Origin: Agelas oroides
Taxonomy: Eukaryota > Porifera > Demospongiae > Agelasida > Agelasidae
Direction: 5' to 3'
DNA length: 64,000 bases
Assembly (NCBI GenBank): GCA_949130485.1
Contig: OX422185.1
Span: 14,259,011 to 14,323,010, forward strand
Below are positions 25,168-34,680 of the stretch, piece after piece. The stretch's first letter is position 1; every line of letters begins with the position of its first letter. The position numbers were made by a program, and so were the translations under genes. The notes under the pieces are model-generated. The model was not told the origin of the DNA. It did no database searches and was given only the letters and a program-made list of their open reading frames with translations.

Positions 25168-25789
25168 ATGAAGAGCCTGAAGTTTAAAATATGCTTATAA
25201 AAAAAACGACAACAAACCAAAAATAAAAAAGCACTGACGGACTTGTATCAAATACACAGCAGGTTGCCATCAGATCAATGATAGCACTGCTGTAGTCTTG
25301 GTCTCTCAGTGATGATGGACTGCTTACAGCACAGTATGTGTGTTCTTGTATTCTGCTGACCAAGTCAACTGCTCTATCCTGGTGATTTCATTGTCCAGAT
25401 CAATGTCTCAAATCTAAACCAGGGTAAAGTGAAGAATTGGTTACGTATGATCAGCACACTGAATGAAACGCATACAGTAAAACCTCCGAACAAAGGACAC
25501 TTTGGGGACGGGCCATTTGTCCTTTGTAGAGAGGTTGTCCCCTTCTTGGAGGTTTTCTACTGGAAAGTCCTTAAAGACCAAAAATAACACTTTAAAATCT
25601 TTGAAATGTATTAATACATTTTGTTATATACCTAGTATACGCGCCAATAGTACTTCCCATATTATATTCTACACGTTTTTTTTTTCAATTGTGAGATAGC
25701 AAGAGCAATACTATACATGTATTAAAAATGTATAATGATTGCAATTATGATGTAATTACATAATTACACAGTAATTACATAAACGTACA

Positions 25790-26362
25790 CAGGCCGGTAG
25801 GCAGGGGGAGTTCGAGAGACCCCCTTTTGGCCTCCAAAAGATTTTATATGCACCGCTTAACTGTACATTTTAAGTGCCCTACCATTTGAAATTGGTCCAC
25901 TAGTCTTGCTGCTATATTGAAAATCACCACCGTCCAAATGAGTTTGGTTGCAGCTATGTAAGTTTGTTCATGGAAGACCAGCACGGAACGTGCGCATAAG
26001 CTGTTTACGCCACTGTGATGAAAGGATGCGCGTAAATACGTGCGTAAATAAATTGCTATTTCAGGCGCTCGAGACTAGTCCAGAGCTCACCAGTTGTCTT
26101 CCTAGTGATGTCACCCCACCTGTTAACAAATGTATACGTGGACAGCCAAAAATTAGATGCAATACTCCGCAAGCCATGTAACTACAATGGCTCCACTTCT
26201 GTCGCAAAATGGCCTCAGAAGCAATCTCAGAGCATCTAATTTCTAAAAATCTCCTGGGGGAGCATGACCCCAGACCCCCCTAGTCTTGCATGCTTATGCA
26301 TGCATACATACAAATCAGATATCCATGTAACCCCCCTTCTGAAAATCCTGGCTATGGGCCTG
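25790..26362. mobile_element. hAT-like MITE, CAGGCC..TAG termini
   Basis: CAGGCCGGTAGGCAGG at the left is inverted relative to CCTGGCTATGGGCCTG at the right. The right half contains the module GCCTCAGAAGCAATCTCAGA followed by CTGGGGGAGCATG, which recurs in many other places in the window. No clean 8-bp target duplication is seen. Confidence 0.6.
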
Positions 26363-26762
26363 ATACAATAGTTATTTATAACTGAAATATTTCATCATTT
26401 ACAAGTACAGTGGAAAGGACCACCGCTCGGAATACGAGGCTCCGTTACGAGCATTTGGTACACTTCCGGTAGGCATGGTAATGTATGCTCAGGCTGTTGA
26501 GCACAATGAGGTCACACGTTCGTACCTCTCTGTTGCTGTACAATGGTGAGAAAGGCTAGCACAATGAGAAGCAGTGCTAATATAATGCCCAGTCTTTGAA
26601 TCCAGCGATGGTGGCACACAATCTTACGAAAGTGGTCGACAAGCGTCTGCATTATGTACAAATTGTCGGTGGGTGTAGTTTCACTGTCCGTTTTCGGTGG
26701 TAATTTTGTATTGGCTTAGGTAAGTCCGGGACTGATCAGTGTCTGTTGTACGGAGTTGAGAG

Positions 26763-27523
26763 GTGTCTGCTTCTCGGAGGTTCGAAATGTATTCTATGGT
26801 AAAATCAATTCACGTGATGCCGTTCAAAGTGATTTTTGCATTGGTTTGTCTGGATCGTGTTCTCCTCTCTCTGAACTCTTTGGAGGAGCCCAGTCCTCTC
26901 AAATGGGGTCTAGAAGTTGAGAGTGTCCTACAGCCTTTGTTCTACAAAATTCTCTCCCCGTTCTCACTTTTTGCGGGTCGCCCCTACTTTCGACACCGAA
27001 ATTATTGCCAACCTATTAAGGTACTCAAGTCAAAATGGTGCATCTGGTTTTGCTTACTTATATGTGGCGATATTGAAGCTAACCCAGGGCCTTTTCCCTG
27101 CTCTGTTTGTGTGCAGGAGGTCCAAGATGACCAACAAGGACTGTACTGCGAGGTGTGTTTTAATTGGAATCACCGAGCTTGTGTAAACATGAGTGAACCA
27201 GAGTACTTCCATTGGGCAAATATTGACGATGGATGGGTCTGCCCAAAGTGCGACCAAGAGGCCCTACCCTTTTATGATGCTACCTTTCTCTCTTCAACAA
27301 TAGAATCGTCCTTCCACTCCTCCCAGATGATTATGCCTAAGAACAATTCTCTCAGAATTCTATCTTTCAATGCAAGGAGTTTACTCCCCAAAATTGACCT
27401 ACTGAGAGCCCTCTGTTTGAACGAACCCTACGATCTGCTGATTGTCACTGAGACCTGGCTTTCCCTGGATATCTTGAACTCTGAAATACGTATCTCCGGG
27501 TTTGATATTGCCAGAAAGGACAG
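26763..27523 (+). pseudogene. LINE N-terminal protein: 2A-like motif, PHD finger, start of endonuclease
   Basis: Numbering follows an ORF opened at ATG 26763. After a hydrophobic stretch, residues 102-110 read GDIEANPGP (27066-27092), which fits the D-x-E-x-NPGP 2A ribosome-skipping consensus. A complete C4HC3 PHD finger follows at once: C113, C116, C129, C132, H137, C140, C160, C163, with W158 two residues before the last pair. From residue 198, LRILSFNARSLLPK and then LLIVTETWL (E230) are the opening motifs of an APE-type endonuclease. The protein is cut after GFDIARKDR by the nested insertion, and the last 11 codons of the apparent ORF belong to the insert. PHD fingers and 2A motifs are both documented in some CR1-like LINEs; cleavage activity here is an inference. 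Confidence 0.85.
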
Positions 27524-28194
27524 AAGCGTGTTGAATGCTTTAAATATCTGGGCTTACTCTTAACATCAGATCTTTCCTGGTCCACCCATGTTGATTCTAT
27601 ATGCAGTAAGGCAAGGAAACTGCTGGGACTACTGTACAGAAAATACTACCAATATGCAGAGCCGCAGATCCTACTCCAACTGTATGTATCCCTGGTATTA
27701 GAGTATGCCAGCCCAGTATGGAACCCCTACTTGCGGAAAAATATCAACACGCTAGAGAATGTCCAGAAATTTGCCCTCAGAATGTGCTTCAAACGCTGGG
27801 ATCAGGCCTATTCCCAAATGCTCCAGTCATTTAACATCGCTGAACTGTCTGAACGCAGACTCTACCTTGACCTCTGCACCATGTTCAAAATTGTGCACGG
27901 ACTACTTAATTTTCCCTCTGGCATTTTTAATACTTACTCAGGTAGAACTCAAAGTACTAACAGACCCTTTTTGTTTTATAGACCTTTCGTCCACACTAAC
28001 TACTTCTATAACTCGTTTGTCCCTCGTACAGTTACTATATGGAACACACTTCCAGTCTCACTTGTGTCTAATAGTTACGTACCACATTTTAGATCACATG
28101 TATGGATGCATATTACACATTAGCTCTGCTATTTTATGTATCCCTTGCTATTTGGCATAAACTTTTATAGAAAAAAAATAAATAAAAAAAAATT
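27523..28194 (+). mobile_element. 5'-truncated LINE 3' end nested in the host LINE
   Basis: A 672-bp insert enters the endonuclease domain between ...GFDIARKDR and HGGGVAIYI. It starts in the middle of a reverse-transcriptase C-terminal region and ends with an AAAAAAAATAAAT-type tail at 28170-28192. This is the usual shape of a LINE copy truncated by incomplete reverse transcription. GACA stands at 27519-27522 and 28195-28198 as a possible short target duplication. Confidence 0.85.
27524..28123 (+). pseudogene. LINE reverse transcriptase, C-terminal fragment (nested copy)
   Basis: 199 codons open to a natural-looking stop. It opens with VECFKYLGLLLTSDLSW, the segment that follows the RT palm in APE LINEs, then SKARKLLGLLYRKYY and LEYASPVWNPYL. 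It ends with FVPRTVTIWNTLPVSLV, the conserved end of these ORF2 proteins. The host LINE has the equivalent FKYLGIWLSDDLTWSKHI (29850-29910) with clearly different residues, so the two are separate families. No catalytic motif is present. Confidence 0.85.
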
Positions 28195-28196
28195 GA

Positions 28197-29641
28197 CATG
28201 GAGGAGGTGTAGCTATATATATACGCAACACCATCCCCTATTCAAGACTTGAAATCCACCAACCTGATCTTGAATTGATCTTATGTGAATGCCACATTGG
28301 GAATCACCTGCAGACCATTGGTGGTTTTTACCGCCCCCCTAACTCAAACTCTGACGTTATGTCCAAACTCTCAAATGTAGTTTCTCTCCTGCGCCCCCAG
28401 AATCTAACAAACCTGATAATATGTGGTGATTTTAACATAAATATACAGGGGGCAGTCAACTGTCATCTTCACTCCCTCCAACAACTCCAACTCGATTTTG
28501 ATCGATCTCAGGTTGTAAATTCCCCTACAAGAGTTAGCAACTCAACTTCCTCCACTTTAGACCTTGTCCTTTTATCAAATCCAGAACAGCTTGAATCCTG
28601 TGATGTTCTACCTCCAATTGGTTCCTCAGATCATTCCTCTGTCTCAGTATCTTTGAGCCTGCCTCAGAAGAAAAGAGATAAACAACCTACTAAATCAGTG
28701 TGGATCTACAAAGCAGCTGACATGTCTAAAGCTAGGGAGCTCCTTCCCTCTCTTCCATTGTCCAACACCACAGATGATGTGGATATTGCCTGGCAGAAAT
28801 GGGTTAAAGAGTTTGTGACCATAATGGAAGAATGTATCCCCAAGAAATTGGTACCAATGGAGTCTGGAACTCCTTGGATTAATGGAGAGATTAGAAACGA
28901 CATCGCTAGACAAGAAAGACTCTACAATCGCTTCAAACGCTCTAAATCACTAGACATTTTACAAAGGTATAAATCACTAAGAAACTCTATTGTCAGTAAA
29001 ATCCGTCTAGCTAAGAAAACATTTTTAAACAATCTCTCATCTTCACTAAATGATGCTAAAAAATTTTGGTCCACGATCAGAAGGATTAACCCACGGCCTG
29101 ACCTGTCCTCCCTCTCGAACGTAGTTCCTATCCCAAAGGGAGACACAAAGAAAAACGAAGTTCAGTCCTTTAGACCTATTTCCCTACTACCGATTATCAG
29201 CAAGGTCCTAGAAAGACACTTCCATCAACTGATCTCAGAATTTACCTCCATAAACAATATCCTGACCGACGACCAATTCGGGTTTCGACCAGGCCGTTGT
29301 ACCACAACCCCCCTACTCCTGTCTATCCATGAATGGCACAAAGCACTTGAGAGCAGGAAGAGAGTAGCCTGTGTGCTTTTTGATGTAAAAAAAGCCTTTG
29401 ACAGTGTGCCTCACAATACACTGCTGAATAAAATCCACCATCTCAAAATTCCATCAATCATCCTTCACTGGCTGATTAGCTACTTGATGAACCGTTTCCA
29501 ACGAGTTGTCTTCAAAGGATGTTCTTCGACTTGGCTCCCAGTTAGATCAGGTGTGCCGCAGGGGTCTATACTTGGTCCGCTACTATTTCTGCTGTATATG
29601 AATGACATTTCAGATGTTCCCCTGACACCTAGAACAAAACT
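28197..29641 (+). pseudogene. LINE endonuclease (rest) and reverse transcriptase
   Basis: Resumes the host LINE frame at HGGGVAIYIR. With ATG 28275 as residue 1, the endonuclease motifs are GDFNIN (51-56) and SDHSSV (118-123). Reverse transcriptase follows with PIPKGD (285-290), FRPISLLPIISKVLE (299-313), FGFRPGRCTT (335-344), motif A FDVKKAFDSV (369-378) and motif B SGVPQGSILGP (425-435). Between KKFWSTIRRINPRPDL and VVPIPKGD only a few residues remain where related proteins have roughly 100, which suggests an in-frame deletion of the RT N-terminal part. An extra T in the run at 29640-29646 throws the frame just before the catalytic ADD box. Confidence 0.9.
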
Positions 29642-30360
29642 TTTTTGCTGATGACATCTTACTTTTTAAACCAATCAAGTCAGATTCTGACTTTTGCGAC
29701 TTCCAGAAGGACATCGACGCAATAAGCAATTGGACAGTTGCAAATCACTTAACCCTGAATGCTAACAAAACCAAAGTCATGCTAATTTCTCGCAACAGAA
29801 AATCACAATGTCCGTCATTTTCACTCAATGGTATTCAGATTGAGAAGGTGAGACATTTCAAATATCTAGGCATTTGGCTATCAGATGACCTCACATGGTC
29901 CAAACACATTGAAAGTGTTTGCTGCAAAGCACGGAGAGTTCTTGGATATATATATCGCACTTTCTCCCCTCACTGTTCCACTGAATCTATTCTGCACTTA
30001 TATAAAACCCAAGTTCTTCCCATAATTGAATACGGATGTGTTATCTGGGACCCACACTTCAAAAAGGACAAGATACTTCTGGAGAGCGTCCAACACTTTG
30101 CAATTCGAATTGCCACCAAGCCTTGGTCCAGTCACAACTTTAGTCCCCCATATGACCTACCATCTCTTGAATGACGGCGACAGTACCACAAACTACTTTA
30201 TACCTTTAAATTTTTAAATGGCCTTTCCTTTTGCCCTCCTGGCTTTTTTACAATTAAAAGTAACCCTAACTTAAGAATTTATCATACTAAATGTCTAGAA
30301 CAACCCTTCGCCAAAACTGTATCTTTTTTTAATTCTTTTTTTTGTTGGCTCAATTAAGCT
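29642..30360 (+). pseudogene. LINE reverse transcriptase, catalytic ADD box to C terminus
   Basis: Continues in the next frame with FADDILLFKPI, the catalytic motif C. Then come LNANKTKVMLIS (motif D), FKYLGIWLSDDLTWSKHI and LPIIEYGCVIWDPHF. A TGA at 30172-30174 stops the frame after DLPSLE. The same frame reads on after the stop through RRQYHKLLYTFKFLNG and FFTIKSNP, so the stop is a later mutation. An AT-rich 3' region and the A-rich tail follow. Confidence 0.85.
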
Positions 30361-30936
30361 TTGGAACTTCTTACCTAATGATTAATTGACTCTATTACTT
30401 CTTTTAAAGGTAATCTTAAAACCTTATTTTCATTGTAGCTCTCATCCGTATGAGCCATTGTCTTGTATACGTCACATTTTTTTTCTTGTTGTTGATGTTG
30501 TTTTTTTTTTTATTTTTTTTATTTTGAGGTCCTTTATACTAGCTTCGGCTATTGGACTGTACACTGAATTGTTATAATTCATTGTTCAACACAAAAATAA
30601 AAAAATTAAAAAATAAAAATTGGGGGCAAGTGACCTGTCCACTGTACAGAAGTAGTCCGCTTTTTGGAGGGTCTGTTATTAGAGGTTTTACTGTACATGC
30701 AATGTACTGTACTTCCTTGATCAGATACATTTAGTTTCAATGTTTCCTTTTGTGTAGCTACTATTCAAGAGTGGTGTATACGTATTCCTTTGGAAAGCCC
30801 ACAGATACAGACTAGCTACACATTTGCAGTACTACTTATGTACAATACAGCGAGGTCTGGAACTAGGACCAATGATACCCAGGGATTCATTTAGTGGGCG
30901 GTATTTGCCCCCTGCCCCCATGTCAAAATAATCTTG

Positions 30937-31400: not shown

Positions 31401-31762
31401 GTTTTGACTGCCAACCCTTCGTTTGCAGGCGAGAAGCACGCTTATCGTCTGCACAGATCTGTGTCCACACGTACTTCATGGTCCGGACGTAAAAGATAGT
31501 TGTGGAGACTTGAAAACGAGCAGATTTTGAGCGCAGTGGCCACTGTGACATTCTTGGCCGGTGATGCTTGGAATCCGATCTAGACTATTACAAAGCAAAA
31601 CTCCGACCAGCTTGCGAACACCACTCCTTCACGTGGTTCCCTGGGTGCACAACCGCTGATGCTGAGGGACATTGATCTCCATCCGTGCAGACGTGAAGCG
31701 AATCAGAATTCTGTTACTATGCCACAACTAAAGCAAAGACTTGTAGTGACGTTTTAGGCCCC

Positions 31763-31843
31763 AAATTGGCCTCAGGAGCCATCTCAGAGCATCAAATTTC
31801 AAAAAGATTTCCTGGGGGAGTATACCTCCACACCCCCCTAGTT
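31763..31843 (+). repeat. hAT-MITE module fragment
   Basis: GGCCTCAGGAGCCATCTCAG, CATCAAATTTCAAAAAG and CCTGGGGGAGTAT are followed by ACCCCCCTAG and TGCATGCATGC. This module recurs at 26200-26285, 34275-34350, 47640-47700, 48018-48080 and 58805-58850, and inverted at 55320-55385 and 57765-57830. Confidence 0.7.
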
Positions 31844-31849
31844 TCTGCA

Positions 31850-32700
31850 TGCATGCCTAACGTACACACTCGGGCTCGGGTACAAGTATTGGTAAGCCAG
31901 ACCAATGGAATTTTGCTTCCACTGGGCCTAGTATAAGGTCATGTAACTTTGTGTTTGTGTTTTTGCTTGTACTCATGTTTGTGTACTTCAAAGTCTTCAT
32001 TGTGTTTTTGTGTTTTGTACTCATGTCCTGTAGTTTGCAGTCTTGTGGTTGATTATATTGTGCTTTGAGTAATAACAAACTGGCTTTTCTAAAAGCCACC
32101 AAATGTAAAAAGACTTAACCAATCTGCTTAATCAATAACTGTTGACTAGAAGCCTTGTGTGATTGACACATTACAGTGTTATCCACAACATTTTTAGCCC
32201 AGTCCTTAACATGGCTGTGGTGTGGGCTTGAGGGCATGACTAGTACTAAAATCGAGAGACTCGCAGTAAATCCGGGGCAAGTGGAAAATGCTGAAGTGCA
32301 GAAATGGAAGTACGGAAGTGAGAAGAAAAGCCGCCTATGTATCAGTGTCTGGTACCTTACTGACTCACGACTGTGTTTGTAGCCAAAGGGTGACTGTCTT
32401 CAAGTGATGTGAAAGCGCCGGGTACTGGGACCTCAAACTCCAGTGAGCACTAACCACTGTTGTTTAGCATGACACGCTGAGTGTAGTTTGGTCTTGTCTT
32501 GGTCTCATTCTGAGACTGCAGTGACCATTTTACTGATGAACTGTTACAAATTGCGATATGACAACAAATCACATCCAGTCTATTTTGGATTCTGATTGGC
32601 CAACTCTACATTCCTTCACGTCACTGTGAACAAATGCATTATACATGATAGATGGATACATGCACCATCACTACTGTTGACCTTCATTACTGCATAGATA
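31850..32700. other. Intergenic stretch, no recognised gene
   Basis: Contains a TTGTGTTTTTG-rich patch at 31950-32010. ORFs are below 82 codons and featureless. Confidence 0.5.
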
Positions 32701-33659: not shown

Positions 33660-34680
33660 ATCCCAATGCACAAGGAGCAACTTGCATCACCCTCCTCAGT
33701 GTTGGCCTCCACAGGTAACAAACATTCCCAAGCAGCAAATATTTCCCCACCCCCGGCTTCCCCCTTCCCACACTAGCATGGTCTACAGGAAAACATGATC
33801 CGACTGACCAATGGATTGGCTAACCGTGTGCATCCCAGTCATCATGGCCATAGCAAGCGGTCGGGCTGGTCGGGTTTTGGCCTGACCACATTTACGCAGA
33901 CCCAACTTGCACATGCACATTTTGAATTATGTAGATCGAAGATAGCAGCTATACAAGCCCTTTCAGTCAATTAACTATTAACTCCTAACCCCCCACACAC
34001 TTTGCCCCAACACGAGTTGTCTGGCTGTACACGCCGCTAAGTTTAAACGTGGAATCTCCATGTGGTCACAGTGAATCAGAATCTAGCCGCTTGCCAAGAA
34101 ACATGGGTAAGAAGCTCTCCTAGCAAAATATTTGCTGTGGGAGCATATCCGCAGACACCTTGCTCACTAAAGTGACCTTACGCACGCAATCTGCAATGTG
34201 CTACCCCGCAGTGTGGACGTGTAGCAACTCTCAAAATTCTTGCCAAGGATTTTACAGGTATTTTTGGAAAAAAATGGCCTCAGAAGCATTTTCCGAGCGG
34301 CTAATTTATAAAATTACTCTGGGGGAGCCAGACCTCCCTAGCTGCTGCGTGCTTACAGTCAGGACTTTGGCCACACAACCTCTAAATAGCTTGCTACGGC
34401 AATGTGTGTGCCAAAAGACATAATTATGTAACTCACAATACTGTAACATAACACATGCTATGGCAAACCAAGCTAGCTATTTGCTCTCCTCAGTATTGGG
34501 CATCCACAGGTACACAACATGTCCAAGCAGGAAATAGTCCCCCCCCCCTTATGGAGTTACCACCACTTTGCCTGGTGTCACCTGTTTGTACCTACTTGAA
34601 GTGAGCCTGAGCATGTCCCAAACTAGCGTTGTCTACAGAAAAATGTGCCAATCAGCCAACCATGTTCATCCCAGTCATGT
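33660..34680 (+). repeat. Direct repeat pair with an inverted dispersed repeat between
   Basis: 33690-33845 recurs at about 34480-34680. Shared segments in order are CTCCTCAGTRTTGG, CATCCACAGGTA, CCAAGCAG, GTCTACAG and CATCCCAGTCAT. The sequence between them (33846-34350) is a reversed, diverged third copy of the repeat at 15801-16890 and 17118-18092. Confidence 0.65.
33846..34350 (-). repeat. Dispersed ~1-kb repeat, copy C (inverted)
   Basis: Reverse-complement matches to copies A and B: GGTCGGGTTTTGGCCTGACC, GAATCAGAATCTAGCCGC, GCCAAGAAACAT and CAGTGTGGACGTGTAGCAA. It is diverged and internally shortened, and ends with the hAT-type module at 34275-34350. Confidence 0.65.

What the first reader, a model, noticed from the sequence alone, without database searches (positions are those of the whole stretch)
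27066..27092. 2A-like ribosome-skipping motif directly before a PHD finger in a LINE
GDIEANPGP fits the 2A consensus, is preceded by a hydrophobic stretch, and is followed three residues later by a complete C4HC3 PHD finger. APE-type LINEs with N-terminal 2A motifs are known. Here it would release a roughly 109-residue leader from a PHD-endonuclease-RT protein.
Basis: partly seen in the sequence, partly recalled or inferred. Interest (0 to 1): 0.75.

Follow-up and report, generated by a model that had tools for sequence, protein, structure and literature searches.

The report
Conserved ribosome-skipping site in animal LINEs
A jumping gene in this genome carries a short, strongly conserved peptide signal that probably makes the ribosome release a small leader before making the enzyme, a trick already reported for related elements.

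Summary
GDIEANPGP lies at 27066-27092, two residues before a C4HC3 PHD finger, in a LINE with PHD, endonuclease (EN) and reverse transcriptase (RT). The window copy is broken: a 664-bp insertion, about 333 nt missing, RT frameshifted. The motif is still not chance. Of 64 PHD-LINE loci here with the PHD start preserved, 59 carry NPGP before it; in 30 non-redundant ones N, P, G, P are kept in 29, 30, 29, 28 while codons vary. The DNA pattern occurs 104 times, its reversed control 0.

Best reading: a 2A/StopGo site that frees PHD-EN-RT from a leader with a signal-like N-terminus and a hydrophobic segment at the site. Skipping was not assayed. PHD-first single-ORF LINEs and 2A-bearing LINEs are both published: a new member of a known kind.

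Two details may be new. Position 14, nearly always Glu in viruses, is free in LINEs (E in 21 of 30 here, 10 of 24 public LINE proteins). The leaders share a layout. In passing: a Death-domain gene family here also carries the site.

The parts
26787..27089 (+). Leader coding region from the first Met to the Gly of NPG, 101 codons (alternative Met at 26817, 91 codons)
26817..26873 (+). N-terminal hydrophobic, signal-peptide-like segment of the leader (MPFKVIFALVCLDRVLLSL)
   Evidence: the 18 leaders together are significant, this leader alone p=0.07
27027..27065 (+). Second hydrophobic stretch directly upstream of the motif (KSKWCIWFCLLIC)
   Evidence: this leader alone p=0.055
27066..27092 (+). 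2A/StopGo-like motif GDIEANPGP; predicted break between Gly (27087-27089) and Pro (27090-27092)
27099..27251 (+). PHD finger C4HC3, Pygopus-type by sequence
   Evidence: Pfam PF00628 E 2.1e-5; alignment A1; profile to PDB Pygopus chains E 2.5e-11
27360..27525 (+). Start of the AP-endonuclease domain, interrupted
   Evidence: homology with other LINEs; PF03372 only weak on this fragment, E 0.14
27526..28189 (+). Nested insertion, read as the 5'-truncated 3' end of another LINE
   Evidence: absent from L011/L079; open frame 27506-28123. No Pfam hit; the LINE assignment rests on my reading of RT-tail-like sequence and an A-rich 3' end
28200..28643 (+). Rest of the AP-endonuclease domain
   Evidence: PF14529 E 1.2e-10, PF03372 E 1.6e-7
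29111..29112 (+). Junction where about 333 nt present in L011/L079 are missing
29142..29612 (+). Reverse transcriptase, first part
   Evidence: PF00078 E 8.5e-28
29641..29877 (+). Reverse transcriptase, second part, in another frame (frameshift near 29640)
   Evidence: PF00078 E 5.3e-7
30560..30619 (+). A-rich 3' end of the element
   Evidence: homology with L079 ends at 30619

Best explanation
The motif is a 2A/StopGo site of an APE-type LINE of the Jockey superfamily (CR1/L2-like; clade inferred, not tested) whose intact relatives have PHD, EN and RT in one frame. The ribosome first makes a leader, usually 75-110 residues. The leader has a signal-peptide-like N-terminus and a hydrophobic segment that sits in the exit tunnel when the ribosome reaches GDIExNPG. 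No Gly-Pro bond is made; the leader is released and translation continues from Pro into PHD-EN-RT. Shown here: conservation of the motif, of the hydrophobic context and of the position just before the PHD, and its absence from the few two-ORF relatives examined. Inferred: that skipping occurs; that the leader goes to the ER or membrane while the freed enzyme, with its PHD now at the N-terminus, stays cytosolic and goes to the nucleus. In this lineage the leader stands where two-ORF relatives have the short basic start of ORF1. The window copy is a dead copy of such an element.
For: Motif 104 vs 0 in the reversed control. NPGP in 59 of 64 PHD loci with the PHD start preserved; in 30 non-redundant ones D 28, N 29, P 30, G 29, P 28, with 2-4 codons used per conserved residue. 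In 18 leaders the last 16 residues (combined p 1e-12) and the first 25 (combined p 1.3e-8) are more hydrophobic than shuffles. Leader dN/dS 0.18-0.35 in the three comparisons among L050, L052 and L077. Open frames of 1030-1162 codons at many of the PHD loci. P0001, 1079 aa, has motif, PHD, EN and RT in one protein. Of 46 public LINE proteins, 14 have a PHD by the local profile; 12 of these reach upstream of it and all 12 have NPGP there, and 12 more of the 46 have NPGP without a PHD call. Two-ORF PHD elements start ORF1 with a short Lys-rich stretch and lack NPGP (3 of 3 with a PHD read; 0 of 13 stretches, from 11 elements, hold NPGP in any frame). Published: core (D/G/C/N)(V/I)ExNPGP, and p14=H above 95 % active in vitro (PMC12846837, sections 9 and 14 read).
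Against: No translation assay. In 9 of 30 non-redundant local PHD families and 14 of 24 public NPGP-bearing LINE proteins position 14 is not Glu, while viral sites are almost exclusively Glu, and a Glu-to-Gln change was cited there as only 26-56 % active (PMC12846837); some may skip poorly. Five of 64 PHD loci lack NPGP, and 22 of 46 public LINE proteins lack it (two of these start inside the PHD). The loci were gathered with a query that contained the motif, so the sample leans towards motif carriers. Singly, only 9 of 18 leaders are p<0.05 at the N-terminus and 12 of 18 at the C-terminus, and the leaders are related, so the combined p-values are too small. Three other leader comparisons were saturated in dS or nearly so. 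The fold model of a leader has mean pLDDT 56 and is confident only for the N-terminal helix. Only 3 two-ORF PHD elements were read although one search lists 130 ORF1-like places. The near copy L011 has N for D at p12 and is 5'-truncated.
Confidence: 0.78

Rival explanations
1. GDxxxNPGP is conserved for another reason: as a joint between a membrane-targeting leader and the PHD, or as a protease site, with little or no skipping.
For: Position 14 is free in LINEs (E 21 of 30; 10 of 24), unlike viral sites (PMC12846837). Several long open frames carry H, Q or G there.
Against: The best kept residues are exactly the StopGo ones (D12, N16, P17, G18, P19). p14=H was above 95 % active in a viral context (PMC12846837). 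The motif sits at the same place, ahead of EN, in LINEs with and without a PHD call.
Confidence: 0.14
2. Skipping is real but the leader is only the tunnel context for the 2A site; it has no job of its own after release.
For: Leader middles are hard to align between distant families, the fold model shows no confident core, and three leaders gave no significant Pfam match.
Against: Signal-like segments recur at the N-terminus, far outside the roughly 30-residue 2A context, in leaders taken together. One subgroup shares F-A...W...L-x-P (pairwise BLAST E from 9.7e-13 to 0.013 in a tiny database). dN/dS is below 0.4 in the one clade where it could be measured.
Confidence: 0.35
3. Chance or mere shared descent of neutral sequence.
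For: Many loci are close copies of one another (cut 64 to 30).
Against: Reversed control 0 against 104. Amino acids are kept while codons vary in 30 families, and the motif recurs in 24 of 46 public LINE proteins.
Confidence: 0.02

Closest known systems
[quoted passage not shown] 2013)
   Same: 2A-like motif in APE-type LINEs; from memory, found in CR1, L2, Rex1 and Crack clades and linked with single-ORF elements
   Different: Text not held here; only the title was seen. Whether its elements have the PHD next to the motif, the signal-like leader start or p14 variants could not be checked.
Type IIIA single-ORF LINEs with an N-terminal PHD (L2 subgroup 4, CR1 subgroup 6; PMC4120745)
   Same: One ORF, PHD first, then EN and RT; the PHD profile matches Pygopus structures best (their Table 1 gives 2vpb_A for L2_4, 1wep_A for CR1_6)
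   Different: In the passages and sections read I saw no mention of 2A; my text search for it failed. [quoted passage not shown] Subgroup membership was not tested by phylogeny.
Sea urchin NLR 2A signal sequences (Roulston et al. 2016, PMC4981915; abstract, introduction part, discussion and passages read)
   Same: Hydrophobic N-terminal 2A-like sequence ahead of a protein; acts as signal sequence when not skipped
   Different: A host immune gene there, a LINE here. The LINE leader has a separate N-terminal signal-like segment, typically 70-100 residues before the motif.
Viral StopGo/2A sites (PMC12846837; abstract, sections 9 and 14 and passages read)
   Same: Core GD(I/V)ExNPGP, Leu-rich upstream context as in some viral motif classes, no codon constraint
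   Different: LINE sites are free at p14; viral ones almost exclusively Glu

Membership tests
2A/StopGo recoding site | Core motif (D/G/C/N)(V/I)ExNPGP | tested here: met
   window: GDIEANPGP. Family: NPGP in 59 of 64, but p14=E in 21 of 30 non-redundant
2A/StopGo recoding site | Suitable upstream nascent-chain context (hydrophobic/Leu-rich in several classes) | tested here: met
   18 leaders, combined p 1e-12, 12 of 18 singly p<0.05; window leader alone p=0.055
2A/StopGo recoding site | Constraint on amino acids, not codons | tested here: met
   codon counts
2A/StopGo recoding site | Release of upstream product and continued translation | not testable with these tools
   needs a translation assay
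Single-ORF PHD LINE (Type IIIA, CR1/L2 lineages) | N-terminal PHD, EN and RT in one frame | tested here: met
   P0001 1079 aa; L013, L014, L026 as far as fetched, PHD below Pfam's cut-off in L014 and L026. The window copy itself is broken
Single-ORF PHD LINE (Type IIIA, CR1/L2 lineages) | Placement in the CR1 or L2 lineage by EN-RT phylogeny | not tested
   no named LINE reference set was available
Single-ORF PHD LINE (Type IIIA, CR1/L2 lineages) | No separate ORF1 upstream | tested here: inconclusive
   5' ends of elements were not delimited. Leaders start 68-102 residues before the motif in the 17 local families kept; no search for a further ORF upstream was made

The most novel reading that the evidence does not exclude
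Single-ORF LINEs have replaced ORF1 by a 2A-released, ER-targeted leader peptide that is a gene product in its own right. Their StopGo sites also obey a looser code than viral ones: position 14 may be E, H, Q, N, A, L, S or G, set so that a measured share of the enzyme stays fused to the membrane-directed leader.
Probability: 0.22. Interest if true: 0.62.

Novelty: new member of a known kind. Interest (0 to 1): 0.38.

Why it matters
It gives a large set of natural LINE 2A sites in one genome, many in long open frames and with natural variants at a position thought nearly fixed, so the sequence rules of StopGo can be tested outside viruses. It also makes a clear question testable: how PHD-first LINEs with one ORF do without a separate ORF1, and whether the released leader has a role. 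The same genome holds a Death-domain gene family with the same site. That would extend the sea urchin immune-gene case and suggests the signal is used by cellular genes more widely.

Tried and rejected
Shared origin of the LINE leader and the Death-gene leader: profile comparison gave probability 1.5-1.9 %, and only the last 13-20 residues aligned; rejected beyond the hydrophobic 2A end. Independent second copy of the window element: L010 matches 99.4 % over 3774 nt including flanks and the nested insertion, so it is a duplicated segment, not an independent insertion. Intact twin L011: it is 5'-truncated at window 27021, so its upstream residues are flank. Target-site duplications: no shared word of 7 or more around the nested insertion and none of 9 or more for the whole element in the ranges tried. 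Folded leader core: not supported. Pfam on three leaders: nothing significant. Public proteins as a fully independent sample: P0002 and P0126 are identical over more than 600 residues to loci of this genome, so the database holds this or a very near genome; the 24 NPGP bearers are at most 74 % identical to fetched loci, but whether this genome holds them elsewhere is untested (one search did not complete). Host identity: not established; no named eukaryotic reference is searchable. Literature: searches answered; some searches were rejected for terms that were too short. Odon 2013, Luke 2014 and Rao 2025 are not held, so 'may be new' for p14 freedom and leader layout rests only on what was read.

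Full report
Observation. The window at 27066-27092 on the + strand encodes GDIEANPGP in an open stretch of 267 codons (26760-27563). Upstream of it is KSKWCIWFCLLIC; downstream, after F-P, the first PHD cysteine. Pfam finds PHD (PF00628, E 2.1e-5, just above its cut-off) at residues 105-155, then, in the later frames, AP-endonuclease and reverse transcriptase. In an alignment of eight family members all eight zinc ligands of C4HC3 are invariant. A profile of these PHDs matches Pygopus PHD structures best (E 2.5e-11).

State of the copy. Compared with L011/L079 (matching pieces 95.7-98.8 % identical), the window copy has an insertion at 27526-28189, lacks about 333 nt at 29111/29112, and the shared sequence ends at 30619. 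The RT continues in another frame from about 29640. L011 is itself truncated at window 27021, and L010 is a duplicate of the whole locus (99.4 % over 3774 nt). Neither is evidence of independent conservation. They are included among the 64 loci below, but not as separate members of the 30 non-redundant ones.

Is the motif more than chance? The degenerate DNA pattern for GDIExNPGP occurs 104 times in the 259-Mb genome, the reversed pattern 0 times. To look without picking by motif, I took the 70 listed matches of the protein search whose alignment covers the PHD (one search counts 151 matches and calls its counts lower bounds) and read what stands before the PHD. Six lack the first cysteine pair and were set aside. 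Of the remaining 64, 59 carry NPGP. By an eight-position score (E, H or Q allowed at position 14) 49 have 8, 10 have 7, 3 have 6 and 2 have 5. The query contained the motif, so this sample leans towards carriers. After removing PHDs over 85 % alike, 30 remain: G 28, D 28, I/V 29, N 29, P 30, G 29, P 28. The codons for these residues vary (for example GGT 9, GGG 9, GGC 5, GGA 5 for the first Gly). Position 14 is E 21, H 3, Q 3, A 2, G 1. Loci with H, Q or G there include frames of over 1000 codons (L014, L015, L016, L018, L026, L045, L064, L051).

Public proteins. A search with LINE protein P0001 gave 45 proteins; with P0002, found only, 46 were examined. Fourteen have a PHD by a profile made from the local loci. 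Two of these start inside the PHD (P0002, P0126; both identical to loci of this genome). The other 12 all have NPGP at most 17 residues before it. Twelve more have NPGP with no PHD call; two of those are named Mytilus edulis. So 24 of 46 have NPGP and 22 do not. Over the 24, position 14 is E 10, H 4, N 4, A 2, S 2, L 1, Q 1; these were not made non-redundant. None of the 24 is over 74 % identical to a fetched locus, but their source organisms are mostly unnamed. In PMC12846837 (sections 9 and 14 read) viral p14 is almost exclusively E, with H a rare variant that was highly active.

Leader. Of the local families, 17 have a leader of 60 residues or more from the first Met; with P0001 that makes 18. 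Families with shorter or broken leaders were left out. The first 25 residues and the last 16 are more hydrophobic than shuffles of the same leader (combined p 1.3e-8 and 1e-12; singly p<0.05 in 9 of 18 and 12 of 18). The leaders are related to one another, so the combined values are too small. The window's own are p=0.07 and 0.055; L050 and L077 probably start inside a longer leader. A subgroup (L025, L031, L035, L051, L052, L072, L050, L077) shares a core with invariant F-A, W, L and P. The three comparisons among L050, L052 and L077 give dN/dS 0.18-0.35; of the other three listed pairs two are saturated in the leader and one gives 0.43 at dS 2.7. The fold model has two helices, residues 2-32 (confident) and 73-85 (low confidence); the middle is unresolved.

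Contrast with two-ORF LINEs. I read 13 stretches, from 11 LINEs whose match covered only the endonuclease. None holds NPGP in any frame. Three (L081, L082, L091) have a PHD near the start of an ORF1 that begins with a short Lys-rich sequence; in L081 and L082 the endonuclease lies in another frame. L091's frame is open further upstream with hydrophobic stretches but no NPGP. One search lists 130 places like the L081 ORF1, so this contrast rests on a small part. It fits the report, recalled from Odon 2013 and not readable here, that 2A goes with single-ORF elements. It also fits PMC4120745, which describes single-ORF PHD LINEs.

Side finding. Eight motif places fetched as loci (L001-L008) are not LINEs. 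All eight have a leader with a membrane-like segment and a Leu-run before GDIE(T/M)NPGP; in L001 a Death domain follows in frame (E 1.5e-4, just under the cut-off). One search found 158 relatives and listed 120; 94 of these 120 hold NPGP, all 94 with E at position 14. The best one is identical to L001, so many may come from this genome or a very near one. Seven relatives that I chose all match the Death domain, four above the Pfam cut-off. Of the 104 motif places 100 were listed: 20 fall in the PHD loci, 8 are this gene family, and 72 were not identified.

Verdict. The kind of element is known. What may be worth following is the free position 14 and the two-part leader.

Noticed in passing
L001-L008 (G000 contig C1, 4.6-404 kb): A cellular multigene family with a roughly 150-residue leader, GDIE(T/M)NPGP and, in L001 and relatives, a Death domain. 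It resembles the sea urchin NLR 2A case, in an unidentified host..
   Followed up: partly
G000 C1 first 0.5 Mb (13 motif places, all +) and C2 24.4-26.0 of 26.17 Mb (6 places, all -): Motif places cluster near contig ends and point away from the end; possibly a subtelomeric gene family. Only L001-L008 were read..
   Followed up: no
window 25287-29056 and G000 C3 near 15.82 Mb (L010): Duplicated segment, 99.4 % identical over the 3774 nt held, with the nested insertion inside..
   Followed up: partly
L081, L082, L091: Two-ORF-type LINEs in the same genome with a PHD near the start of ORF1, a Lys-rich N-terminus and no 2A..
   Followed up: partly
window 31762-31852 and 34271-34328: Short pieces 85-86 % identical to one stretch of L010 that lies about 500 nt upstream of the LINE leader; probably a dispersed repeat..
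   Followed up: no
L014, L015, L026, L044, L045, L051, L064 and P0128-P0135: 2A-like motifs with H, Q, G, A, L or N in place of Glu at position 14, several in long open LINE frames..
   Followed up: partly
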